From an uncultured Monoglobus sp. (lineage in GTDB: Bacteria; Bacillota; Clostridia; Monoglobales; Monoglobaceae), in contig CANRHV010000012.1 of assembly GCA_947630505.1 (NCBI GenBank), positions 1 through 53,814 on the forward strand: a DNA stretch of 53,814 bases, in the 5' to 3' direction. The position numbers and the translations under genes were made by a program. Of the stretch, positions 21,932-23,855 are shown one piece after another. The notes below the pieces were generated by a model. The model saw only the letters and a list, made by a program, of their open reading frames with translations, had not been told where the DNA came from and ran no database searches. The stretch's first letter is position 1; the number at the start of each line of letters is the position of its first letter.

Positions 21932-23299
21932 ATGATCTACATTAATTTTGACAAGTCCTCGGGCGAGCCGCTTTATATACAGGCGTTCACCCAATTGGCA
22001 GACAAGATAAATCACGGCGAGATCGAGCCGGGCTCAAAGCTGCCGTCGCAGCGACAAATGGCGAGGGATATGAGCGTGTCGGTCAACACGATAACAAACG
22101 CTTATAACATGCTGGCGCAGTACGGATATGTCTCGGCGGCCGAGCGCTCGGGCTATTATGTCAAGAGCGCGGAAAAGGCCGCAGACGTGCCCGACCGTTT
22201 GTGGCGCAGCAATGCGCCTTATGTTTATAACTTCAGCCGAAACGGAACCGATCTGAGTATTCCCTCGGCTTTTCGCCGCGCCTACAGACAGACCGCGAGG
22301 CTTGACGAAAACAAATTCACATATCCCGACTATAACGGCGACTATGACCTGCGCAAGCAGATCTCATACATGCTGAACAAAACACAGGGGATAAAGGCGA
22401 GCCCTGTTCAGATAATAATAGGCACCGATATAACACGGCTTTTGGACTGCCTAATGCGCGTTATCGGCGGCGAGGCGGTTTTCGGACTCGAAAATCCCGC
22501 CTACAATAAAATAGCTCAGTTTATGAACCTGGGAGCCCACAAGATGAATTATCTCAATATCCCGGAGAGCGGCATAAATGCCGAAGCTCTCAAAAACTTT
22601 GACGCCGATGTTCTCTTCCTGATGCCTTTCCACCACTATCCGCTCTACTATAAAATGGACCACGAGCAAAAGCGCGCGGTCCTTGACCGGGCGGGAGACA
22701 AGAGATACATAATAGAATATAACTACGATATGGACTTTGTTTACTCAAATCCGTCGGAGCCGCTTTTCTCAATGACCGAAAACAAAAACGTTATTTTCGC
22801 GGGGGACTTTACGCGGACCGTCTCGCCCTCTCTGAGCGCCGCGTACATGGTGCTGCCCGAGTTTATGCTGGCAAAATGGAAAAGAGTGTTCTACACCTAT
22901 CATTCATGCGTCGGCAGGCAGGATCAGGCGTTTATCACCGAGATCATAAGGGACGGCAGCTATTACTCAAACATAAACCGCCTGCGCAGAATATACAAGA
23001 AAAAAAGGGACCTGCTGATCGGCGCGATAAAGCGTCATCCGTTCGGCAAAAACATTGAGATCTTAAACGCCGAGTGCGGCACGACGCTGCTGCTCAGGCC
23101 GCTCATTGACGCGGACGAGGAATTTTTGATCGACATCGCCCATCAAAACGGCGTTAAGCTCTCATTCATCAAAAACGCCCTCGAAAAGCCCAACCCGATA
23201 ATCTCGGACAGGCTGTTTATCTTAGGTTTCGGCGAGCTCTCGGACGAGGACATAGTCCTCGGAGCAAACAAACTCCTGGATATATGGTCCTCAATTTAA
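21932..23299 (+). CDS. MocR-type (GntR/aminotransferase-fold) regulator lacking the PLP lysine
   Basis: A 455-residue fusion of an N-terminal GntR winged helix (about residues 1-75: PLYIQAFTQLADKINHGEIEPGSKLPSQRQMARDMSVSVNTITNAYNML) with a fold-type-I aminotransferase-like domain. In the family the cofactor lysine lies in a GTFSK motif; here it reads GDFTR, so the position is Arg295. The Asp that contacts the pyridine nitrogen is Tyr263 (IEYNYD instead of EDDYD). The domain therefore probably cannot hold PLP in the usual way. The start ATG has only a weak GGAA site and may be coupled to the sirtuin. It may control this operon; the ligand is unknown. Confidence 0.87.
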   Translation: MIYINFDKSSGEPLYIQAFTQLADKINHGEIEPGSKLPSQRQMARDMSVSVNTITNAYNMLAQYGYVSAAERSGYYVKSAEKAADVPDRLWRSNAPYVYNFSRNGTDLSIPSAFRRAYRQTARLDENKFTYPDYNGDYDLRKQISYMLNKTQGIKASPVQIIIGTDITRLLDCLMRVIGGEAVFGLENPAYNKIAQFMNLGAHKMNYLNIPESGINAEALKNFDADVLFLMPFHHYPLYYKMDHEQKRAVLDRAGDKRYIIEYNYDMDFVYSNPSEPLFSMTENKNVIFAGDFTRTVSPSLSAAYMVLPEFMLAKWKRVFYTYHSCVGRQDQAFITEIIRDGSYYSNINRLRRIYKKKRDLLIGAIKRHPFGKNIEILNAECGTTLLLRPLIDADEEFLIDIAHQNGVKLSFIKNALEKPNPIISDRLFILGFGELSDEDIVLGANKLLDIWSSI

Positions 23300-23330
23300 A
23301 ATAACCGTGTTTGTGTAACCTAATTTTAAT

Positions 23331-23359
23331 TTGAAAATGTTGTAATATTGTGGTATTAT
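23331..23359 (+). promoter_or_regulatory. Promoter of the small peptide gene
   Basis: TTGAAA (23331-23336), a 17-base spacer, and TATTAT (23354-23359). A transcript from here would have a leader of about 155 bases with several hairpins: GCAG/CTGC near 23367, GCGG/CCGC near 23386, and the folded block 23456-23509. Confidence 0.7.
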
Positions 23360-23455
23360 GTAATTGGCAGTTTTTGCTGCAAGTGCGGTATATTCCGCGC
23401 GGAGAAACACTTTGATGTAAATAAAATATGTCAATTTAAAAGGCAGACATAGAAA

Positions 23456-23509
23456 CGTAAGGACGGTTGGCCGCTTCTTCTTTGCGAAACATAATCGTTT
23501 CAGCTTACG
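23456..23509 (+). promoter_or_regulatory. Structured leader before the small peptide gene
   Basis: CGTAAG (23456-23461) and CTTACG (23504-23509) close a domain containing the hairpin CGG-TTGG-CCG (23464-23473) and the hairpin GAAAC (23486-23490)/GTTTC (23497-23501). The closing stem ends one base before the AGGAGG site, so folding could affect access to it. No known riboswitch class was recognised. Confidence 0.5.
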
Positions 23510-23519
23510 AAGGAGGACG

Positions 23520-23609
23520 ATGCCTATGAAAAATTGGGCTTTAAAAGCAGCGGTAATGCTGTTTGTTATCGTTATAATACTTATAGCGTTTGCGCCTGTG
23601 GTGCAATAA
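23520..23609 (+). CDS. Small hydrophobic single-helix peptide, candidate type I toxin
   Basis: A 29-codon open frame (27 residues if the second ATG, at 23526, is used; that one lies 9 bases after a perfect AGGAGG at 23511-23516, a strong argument for it). The peptide has a short polar start (KNWALK), one hydrophobic helix (AAVMLFVIVIILIAFA) and ends in PVVQ. It has its own promoter and a structured leader, and its 3' end coincides with a terminator used by an opposing consensus promoter. This matches the plan of membrane-acting type I toxins such as Fst/Ldr, but there is no sequence match I can name. The toxic role is inferred. It is unrelated to the flanking regulator and pectate lyase genes. 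Confidence 0.6.
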   Translation: MPMKNWALKAAVMLFVIVIILIAFAPVVQ

Positions 23610-23704
23610 AAATAACAACCGATCCAAAGTTTAGCCGCCGAGGATCGGTTGATATTTAACCCATTCGAAGCGGTCAAACCGTTTTTACGCTCTGCCGTTT
23701 CTCT
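23610..23704 (-). ncRNA. Predicted convergent antisense RNA at the small peptide locus
   Basis: A consensus promoter on the minus strand (-35 TTGACA at 23734-23739, 17 bases, -10 TATAAT at 23711-23716) should start a transcript near 23704. It would run to the stem CAACCGATCC/GGATCGGTTG (23616-23625 with 23642-23651) and end in the T-rich tract complementary to 23605-23615. The resulting RNA of about 95 bases is complementary to the 3' end of the peptide mRNA if that mRNA reads into 23690. No protein frame explains this promoter. Confidence 0.6.
23616..23651. terminator. Shared terminator hairpin of the peptide gene and the opposing RNA
   Basis: A perfect 10-base-pair stem with a 16-base loop. 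The minus-strand product is followed by TTATTTTTATT, a good terminator tail; the plus-strand product by ATATTTA, a weaker one. A second plus-strand possibility is GCGGTCAAACCG followed by TTTTT at 23670-23686. Confidence 0.75.
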
Positions 23705-23710
23705 TTTATT

Positions 23711-23739
23711 ATTATATATTATTCTTTTGCTTTTGTCAA
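23711..23739 (-). promoter_or_regulatory. Consensus antisense promoter at the small peptide locus
   Basis: TTGACA (23734-23739), exactly 17 bases, TATAAT (23711-23716), read on the minus strand. It is the only promoter here matching both consensus hexamers without a coding gene downstream of it. Confidence 0.75.
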
Positions 23740-23771
23740 GAATTTTATTAAATCTGATTTAAAATTATTTT

Positions 23772-23804: not shown

Positions 23805-23855
23805 TTTACCCCCGGCTTAAAGTGCTTGTATAATAATATTATAGGGGGAATTTCT

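What the first reader, a model, noticed from the sequence alone, without database searches (positions are those of the whole stretch)
23331..23739. Small hydrophobic peptide gene with convergent consensus antisense promoter: candidate new type I toxin-antitoxin locus
A 27-29-residue single-helix peptide (23520-23609) with perfect AGGAGG has its own promoter (23331-23359) and a folded leader. Opposite it, a perfect TTGACA-N17-TATAAT promoter (23711-23739) reads toward it and stops at a 10-bp hairpin (23616-23651) beside the peptide stop codon. That is the plan of Fst/par-type loci: short membrane toxin, antisense RNA, shared terminator. In addition, a segment near the peptide mRNA start (CGTAAGGACGGTTGGCCGC, 23456-) recurs, as an inverted DNA repeat, near the start of the antisense RNA (CGTAAAAACGGTTTGACCGC read on the minus strand, from 23697). 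So both RNAs would carry a similar 5' hairpin in the same sense. I do not know of a described family with this peptide or this arrangement.
Basis: partly seen in the sequence, partly recalled or inferred. Interest (0 to 1): 0.8.

Follow-up and report, generated by a model that had tools for sequence, protein, structure and literature searches.

The report
Multicopy RNA-controlled toxin–antitoxin family
This is one of about ten copies, in a Monoglobus-like gut bacterium, of an undescribed gene pair in which a tiny membrane peptide, probably a toxin, is kept silent by a small antisense RNA that copies the start of the peptide's own messenger; the pattern of gene loss shows that the RNA can survive without the peptide but not the reverse.

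Summary
The locus is one of about 10 copies in this genome and about 61 in the rabbit-gut Monoglobus genus and a sister genus. Supported by comparison (no expression data): a 27-codon peptide under purifying selection; covarying leader hairpins that hide the Shine-Dalgarno sequence (SD); a minus-strand sRNA gene with conserved promoter, near-invariant 5' domain and a terminator whose wobbles fit only the minus strand. The sRNA persists without the toxin at 13 copies (about 8 independent loci). No intact toxin is known to lack it; one pair is split by an insertion. This is the genetic signature of a toxin–antitoxin pair.

Two corrections. The hairpin is the sRNA's terminator, not a shared one. 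The 'inverted repeat' makes the mRNA's 3' tail complementary to its own 5' leader (three segments, about 35 bp), so the sRNA 5' domain mimics the leader. Folding predicts that sRNA capture of the tail tightens SD hiding in 37/37 copies, like SR4 on bsrG. Two other toxin classes share this layout and, in Monoglobus, the toxin promoter.

It resembles TxpA/BsrG-type systems mechanistically but is not an Fst family member. Toxicity is untested.

The parts
23314..23330 (+). Conserved box TGTAAC-N5-TTAA(C/T) next to the -35 of the toxin promoter; candidate regulator site
   Evidence: Aligned in the copies; genus-wide search: 62 hits against 3 for the reversed control pattern; nearly all loci inspected are TA loci of three classes
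23331..23359 (+). Toxin promoter TTGAAA-N17-TATTAT, extended -10 TG; start near 23366
   Evidence: conserved in copies
23367..23400 (+). Two 5' leader hairpins (23367-23380, 23383-23400)
   Evidence: Covariation: helices 1 and 2; whole leader structure has 33 cells changed on both sides against 7.0 in shuffles, 0/500
23402..23408 (+). Leader segment a (GAGAAAC), pairs with tail a' 23697-23703
   Evidence: Invariant in 37 copies; pairs in minimum-energy folds
23442..23447 (+). Leader segment b (GGCAGA), pairs with tail b' 23691-23696
   Evidence: helix 1, 94.5% of cells paired
23456..23477 (+). Leader segment c (CGTAAGGACGGTTGGCCGCTTC), pairs with tail c' 23667-23689
   Evidence: 22 pairs, 99.3% of cells paired, compensatory C-G to U-A at two pairs; duplex -39 to -51 kcal/mol in intact-leader copies against about -18 for shuffles
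23478..23516 (+). Hairpin hiding the Shine-Dalgarno sequence; SD AAGGAGG at 23510-23516
   Evidence: Helices 3 and 4; SD paired in predicted folds
23526..23609 (+). 27-aa single-helix peptide (candidate toxin) MKNWALKAAVMLFVIVIILIAFAPVVQ
   Evidence: 47 ORFs of family members all 27 codons from the aligned start, dN/dS about 0.39; peptide profile finds 48 full-length members
23606..23704 (-). Antisense sRNA (antitoxin), about 98 nt; 5' domain 23704-23667 near-invariant
   Evidence: 57-copy alignment; covariance-model search
23616..23651 (-). Terminator hairpin of the sRNA, U-tract over the peptide stop codon
   Evidence: 36 G-U wobbles fit the minus strand against 2 for the plus strand
23667..23703 (+). 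3' tail c'b'a' of the toxin mRNA, complement of the sRNA 5' domain and of leader segments a, b, c
23711..23739 (-). sRNA promoter TTGACA-N17-TATAAT
   Evidence: 12/12 consensus; conserved in nearly all copies

Best explanation
A chromosomal, multicopy type I toxin-antitoxin family. The + promoter makes a toxin mRNA whose SD lies in a leader hairpin and whose 3' tail pairs back on three leader segments (5'-3' long-distance pairing). The minus promoter makes a sRNA of about 98 nt, fully complementary to the 3' part of the mRNA from the stop codon to the tail; its 5' domain is a contiguous copy of the three leader segments, so it displaces the leader from the tail. The freed leader arm then extends the SD-hiding hairpin, and the long duplex is presumably cut by RNase III: translation block plus decay, as for SR4 on bsrG mRNA. 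If sRNA synthesis stops, remaining mRNA is translated into a 27-aa transmembrane peptide that damages the membrane. Because the sRNA 5' domain is near-invariant among paralogues, any copy, including solo sRNA genes, should silence any toxin of the family. Shown by comparison: both genes, the peptide reading frame, leader hairpins, strand of the terminator, 5'-3' pairing, loss asymmetry. Inferred: toxicity, transcription, RNase III, displacement, cross-silencing.
For: Multicopy conservation. ORF: 27 codons in all, dN/dS about 0.39. sRNA 5' domain near-invariant in 57 copies; terminator wobbles 36 against 2 for the sRNA strand. Leader hairpins covary. Leader-tail pairing 99.3% with compensatory changes, -39 to -51 kcal/mol. 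Loss asymmetry: 13 solo sRNA copies at about 8 loci, 48 full toxins of which 47 have the sRNA adjacent and one is split from it by an insertion; three copies without sRNA have dead or missing toxins. Solo sRNA unchanged over about 100 nt in three orthologues whose flanks differ. Tail capture makes SD harder to open in 37/37 (6.6 to 10.5 kcal/mol median).
Against: No expression or toxicity data. Compensatory changes in the leader-tail helix are few (2 pairs; 50/500 shuffles reach that number), since both arms are highly conserved; support rests on wobble direction, energies and the independent second class. The predicted SD tightening is thermodynamic only and the copies are related. In most copies the SD is hidden in every state modelled, so how the toxin is ever translated is unclear. 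Sequence invariance of the sRNA 5' domain could partly reflect gene conversion.
Confidence: 0.78

Rival explanations
1. Same type I TA, but hok/AapA-like: the 5'-3' paired full-length mRNA is the inert form, and a nuclease must trim the 3' tail before translation; the sRNA acts on whatever mRNA escapes.
For: Leader-tail pairing is strong; in AapA/IsoA the 5'-3' interaction keeps full-length mRNA silent until 3' trimming (PMC6733600).
Against: Removing the tail in silico hides the SD more, not less, in 37/37 copies, and a trimmed mRNA would lose most of the sRNA's target.
Confidence: 0.2
2. The peptide is not a toxin but a small membrane regulator or stress protein whose level is set by an antisense RNA.
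For: No toxicity data; many single-helix small proteins are benign.
Against: Solo sRNA genes persist and intact toxin without sRNA is not seen; multiple layers of silencing; several unrelated peptides in the same layout.
Confidence: 0.12
3. A miniature mobile element that spreads for its own sake, with peptide and sRNA incidental.
For: Dispersed copies; empty sites at orthologous loci; one intergenic site occupied in opposite orientations in different species.
Against: No terminal inverted repeats or consistent target duplication in the sites examined; internal parts evolve as genes.
Confidence: 0.05
4. A member of the Fst/par family.
For: Convergent promoters, SD-hiding leader, short membrane peptide.
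Against: Peptide motifs and charged tail absent; hairpin serves one strand; repeat is inverted, not direct (PMC7472228); no Rfam match.
Confidence: 0.03

Closest known systems
TxpA/RatA, BsrG/SR4, BsrE/SR5 (Bacillus subtilis type I TA)
   Same: Convergent genes, sRNA of about 100 nt complementary to the 3' part of the toxin mRNA, SD hidden in the mRNA; SR4 binding at the 3' end extends SD hiding (PMC6562991), which is what folding predicts here
   Different: No detectable sequence relation in Rfam, Pfam or NCBIfam; toxin only 27 aa without charged C-terminus; many chromosomal paralogues sharing a near-invariant sRNA 5' domain; solo sRNA genes; sRNA 5' domain copies three leader segments
Fst/par (RNA I / RNA II, pAD1)
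   Same: Convergent promoters, short single-helix peptide, SD-hiding leader hairpin
   Different: Direct repeats there give complementary RNAs and there is a bidirectional terminator; here an inverted repeat gives like RNAs and the terminator serves the sRNA; no PxxxG(C) motif or charged tail
hok/Sok and AapA/IsoA
   Same: 5'-3' long-distance pairing of the toxin mRNA; multicopy chromosomal families (AapA)
   Different: There the antisense RNA covers the 5' region including the SD; here it covers the 3' part. AapA/IsoA antitoxins are strictly locus-specific (PMC6733600), here cross-silencing is predicted
zor/orz of E. coli
   Same: Antitoxin-only copies but no toxin-only copies (PMC11264685)
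   Different: Antitoxin acts on an upstream leader site; unrelated sequences
Clostridioides difficile CD2517.1/RCd8 and relatives
   Same: Convergent 3'-overlapping chromosomal type I TA in a Clostridia member
   Different: Toxins 34-59 aa with lysine-rich tails, often on prophages (PMC6563280); direct homology was not tested, no family match was found here

Membership tests
Type I toxin-antitoxin (general) | Short hydrophobic membrane peptide gene | tested here: met
   27 codons, conserved hydrophobic pattern, dN/dS 0.39; membrane location itself not measured
Type I toxin-antitoxin (general) | Antisense RNA gene with its own promoter overlapping the toxin mRNA | tested here: met
   Promoter 12/12, 57 aligned sRNA copies, strand-specific terminator wobbles; transcription not measured
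Type I toxin-antitoxin (general) | Toxin translation guarded by mRNA structure | tested here: met
   SD hairpin with covariation
Type I toxin-antitoxin (general) | Antitoxin can be kept without toxin, not the reverse | tested here: met
   13 solo sRNAs; 48 full toxins, one of them (L156) split from its sRNA by an insertion at a contig end
Type I toxin-antitoxin (general) | Peptide toxic on overexpression and neutralised by the RNA | not testable with these tools
   Needs an experiment
Fst/par | PxxxG(C) motif and charged C-terminal tail | tested here: not met
   Column profile of 47 peptides ends ...VQ with no PxxxG and no charged tail
Fst/par | DNA direct repeats DRa/DRb giving complementary RNA segments | tested here: not met
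   Repeat is inverted; the two RNAs are alike
Fst/par | Bidirectional terminator shared by both RNAs | tested here: not met
   36 against 2 wobbles favour the minus strand; leader-tail pairing requires read-through; mRNA 3' end not measured
TxpA/BsrG group | 3'-end overlap of about 100 nt between convergent RNAs | tested here: inconclusive
   sRNA 23704-23606 lies wholly opposite the mRNA 3' part if the + RNA reads through, as the pairing implies; RNA ends not measured
TxpA/BsrG group | Sequence homology of toxin or antitoxin | tested here: not met
   No Pfam/NCBIfam match above cut-off; no Rfam match incl. RatA for the window
AapA/IsoA or hok | 5'-3' long-distance interaction in the full-length mRNA | tested here: met
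   (predicted and comparatively supported)
AapA/IsoA or hok | Antisense RNA covers the 5' region of the mRNA | tested here: not met
   sRNA covers stop codon to 3' tail only

The most novel reading that the evidence does not exclude
A so far undescribed organisational class of type I TA in Clostridia: the antitoxin's 5' domain is a mimic of the toxin mRNA's own 5' leader, so that leader and antitoxin compete for the mRNA tail. Three unrelated toxin classes use it (window class; GGTTAGCC class; GCGGTACAGCC class), in Monoglobus under one common toxin promoter with a TGTAAC-N5-TTAA box. In the window class the near-invariant mimic domain works as a family-wide antitoxin that explains the selected solo sRNA genes, and the long-distance helix may double as the mRNA's terminator stem.
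Probability: 0.45. Interest if true: 0.75.

Novelty: new variant of a known kind. Interest (0 to 1): 0.62.

Why it matters
Type I systems in Clostridia outside C. difficile are almost unstudied, because neither the peptides nor the RNAs match known families. Here comparative data alone supply the genetic signature, the strand of the RNA and the pairing scheme, in a gut lineage. A family of about ten paralogues with a near-invariant antitoxin domain makes a clean test of whether one RNA can silence many toxins (AapA/IsoA and C. difficile systems are mostly locus-specific) and of what solo antitoxins are for. The leader-mimic layout gives a searchable rule (two convergent RNAs that begin alike) for finding further unknown type I systems.

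Tried and rejected
Rfam scans of the window and relatives: no family reaches its threshold; best sub-threshold hits are chance-level. Pfam and NCBIfam with the peptides: nothing above cut-off. IMG/VR, phage and PLSDB plasmid collections: no copy of the window family. Intermolecular palindrome pairing of the two like hairpins as the recognition step: considered by eye and dropped once the same segments proved complementary within the mRNA with energies near -45 kcal/mol. hok-like activation by loss of the tail: not favoured by folding. Mobile-element ends: no inverted repeats or consistent duplications at the compared sites. A first own-versus-other pairing matrix for the second class was invalid because it mixed orientations; repeated correctly. 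The covariance-model hit in G033 looks spurious; the G034 hit belongs to the second class.

Full report
WHERE IT IS. The window lies in a 2.7-Mb draft genome. The locus sits between an ORF ending at 23299 and one starting at 23826.

THE OBSERVATION. All named features are present. Searching the own genome with 23330-23760 gave 11 places, and 10 of 12 genomes of the genus have matches. A covariance model of the sRNA found 10 copies in the own genome, 58 in nine genomes of the genus, and three in a sister genus (G013, G014); nothing elsewhere in the 51 genomes of the order except one weak hit that belongs to another class. A 27-residue profile found 10 full toxins in the own genome and 48 overall. 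The family is absent from IMG/VR, phage and plasmid collections.

THE PEPTIDE. 47 ORFs aligned at the start codon all have 27 codons (one, L005, starts one codon earlier); there are no insertions or deletions, codon positions 1 and 3 vary more than 2, and pooled dN/dS is about 0.39. Two subtypes exist: MK.WALKAAVML.... (window) and MK.FFKILIALLVIIVLFAIFA..VQ. The second ATG is the likely start, because in many copies the first ATG is out of frame.

THE sRNA. In 57 copies the 5' domain AAAGAGAAACGGCAGAGCGTAAAAACGG is nearly invariant, and the promoter is recognisable in nearly all copies. The terminator stem differs between copies. Its imperfect pairs are G-U on the sRNA strand 36 times, and C-A on the sRNA strand (G-U on the mRNA strand) 2 times. 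The hairpin is therefore maintained for the minus RNA.

THE mRNA. Leader hairpins covary strongly: 33 cells changed on both sides against 7.0 expected, 0 of 500 shuffles. These include the hairpin that hides the SD. Leader variants AAGG, AGAG, AGGG and AAGA all still pair with UUUU. L029 and L044 have C-G to U-A compensations. Shuffles reach the number of compensated pairs in 50 of 500, so that statistic alone is weak. Minimum-energy folds add segments a (GAGAAAC with GUUUCUC) and b (GGCAGA with UCUGCC). The sRNA 5' domain is thus a contiguous copy of three separate leader segments, and the mRNA must read through the sRNA terminator.

AN INDEPENDENT CHECK. A motif from a different TA class seen in passing (GGCTAACCGTTTN0-2ACGG) was found in 13 of 391 genomes of the class, including two genomes of another family with 11 and 16 copies; control patterns gave 3 hits. 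Those of these loci in which a peptide was recognised encode unrelated 22-32-residue peptides (for example MEYVYIIIFMIVFITLIESIKK, MLNTILKIIVAVVIFFIIVSTKAI) in the same layout. In 19 of 20 the variable part of the leader pairs better with its own tail than with the average of other loci's tails (mean -18.7 against -12.0 kcal/mol). A third class (MKYAFRILFIVSLIHIFFAIFAKTVI and relatives) has the same look by eye.

LOSS PATTERN. Of 61 sRNA genes of the window class, 47 stand next to an intact toxin and 13 do not, at about 8 independent loci: L025/L031/L043, L055/L059/L062, L064/L065, L047, L049, L056, L057, L082. The remaining one is the L083/L156 pair, split by IS-like sequence at contig ends. 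Three copies lacking the sRNA have frameshifted, truncated or absent toxins (L058, L070, L041). The solo sRNA at L055/L059/L062 is identical over about 100 nt while flanking DNA differs. The same asymmetry is known for orz in E. coli (PMC11264685).

MOVEMENT. The L003 site is empty in two other species and carries a subtype-A copy in the opposite orientation in two more; the L002 and L004 sites are also empty in relatives. Inserts are about 0.5 kb with no shared ends seen, so this is not a remnant of a larger element.

REGULATION. The toxin promoter with TGTAAC-N5-TTAA occurs 62 times in the genus (control 3); nearly all loci inspected are TA loci of three classes.

MECHANISM. Folding with the 3' part removed, as if captured by the sRNA, raises the cost of opening the SD from a median 6.6 to 10.5 kcal/mol, in 37 of 37 copies. 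This matches what is known for SR4 on bsrG (PMC6562991) and argues against a simple hok/AapA-like scheme, though it is only a prediction. RNase III cleavage, toxicity and displacement are inferred. The long-distance helix followed by U-rich sequence might end the + transcript; this is a conjecture.

VERDICT. A new multicopy type I TA family, mechanistically closest to BsrG/SR4, not an Fst member; toxicity untested.

Noticed in passing
G000:C2:50407, G000:C5:46908, G000:C25:28661 (L185, L195, L202): Three loci of a second TA class (peptides like MLNTILKIIVAAIIFFITVSIKAI) in the window's own genome, with the same toxin-promoter box.
   Followed up: partly
L189, L190, L198, L199, L204, L205, L207 (G195, G376): Second-class sRNA motif in 11 and 16 copies per genome in a distant Clostridia family; L199 encodes MMLDVFTLFFMLALAWGINIACWIIIYYTTKK.
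   Followed up: partly
L208 (NZ_OY725742.1, 152807-155303): Three second-class copies in tandem, the first with a decayed leader, on a 176-kb Monoglobus pectinilyticus plasmid; none annotated in the table shown. G002 also has three close together.
   Followed up: partly
L212, L216, L219, L222, L234, L235: Third TA class (MKYAFRILFIVSLIHIFFAIFAKTVI, MKHILRIIFLTIMFLVLFTIKAM), leader GCGGTACAGCC against tail GGCTGTACCGC.
   Followed up: partly
L013, L046, L032, L052, L053, L054, L060, L061, L063: In these copies the SD-hiding leader half is replaced by a module of about 190 nt containing a strong terminator-like hairpin (ATCGCCTGCGATTTTTTT); the same module occurs in third-class loci. Possibly an inserted repeat that silences the toxin.
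   Followed up: partly
L082 (G013:C5:24472 region): Between a toxin promoter and a window-class sRNA lies a different small-peptide gene (MDLNIIFILLVLIAILEIIKNIKK) with its own hairpin: apparent toxin swap, compared with L156.
   Followed up: no
L156 and L083 (G014): Toxin and sRNA parts of one locus lie on two contig ends with IS-like sequence at the terminator.
   Followed up: partly
upstream of L025, L031, L043: Conserved leader-like sequence GGTGGAGGATTACGTCCGGTCC...AACCCTGAGAGATGCAGGAGAATGGGACGCC next to the sRNA, perhaps a riboswitch; not identified.
   Followed up: no
intergenic, e.g. L172, L173, L170: Many dispersed short repeats (AACGTAGTGATTAGTGATTAGCGAATAG and GGGGCGGATATTATCCGCCC types) in this genus.
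   Followed up: no
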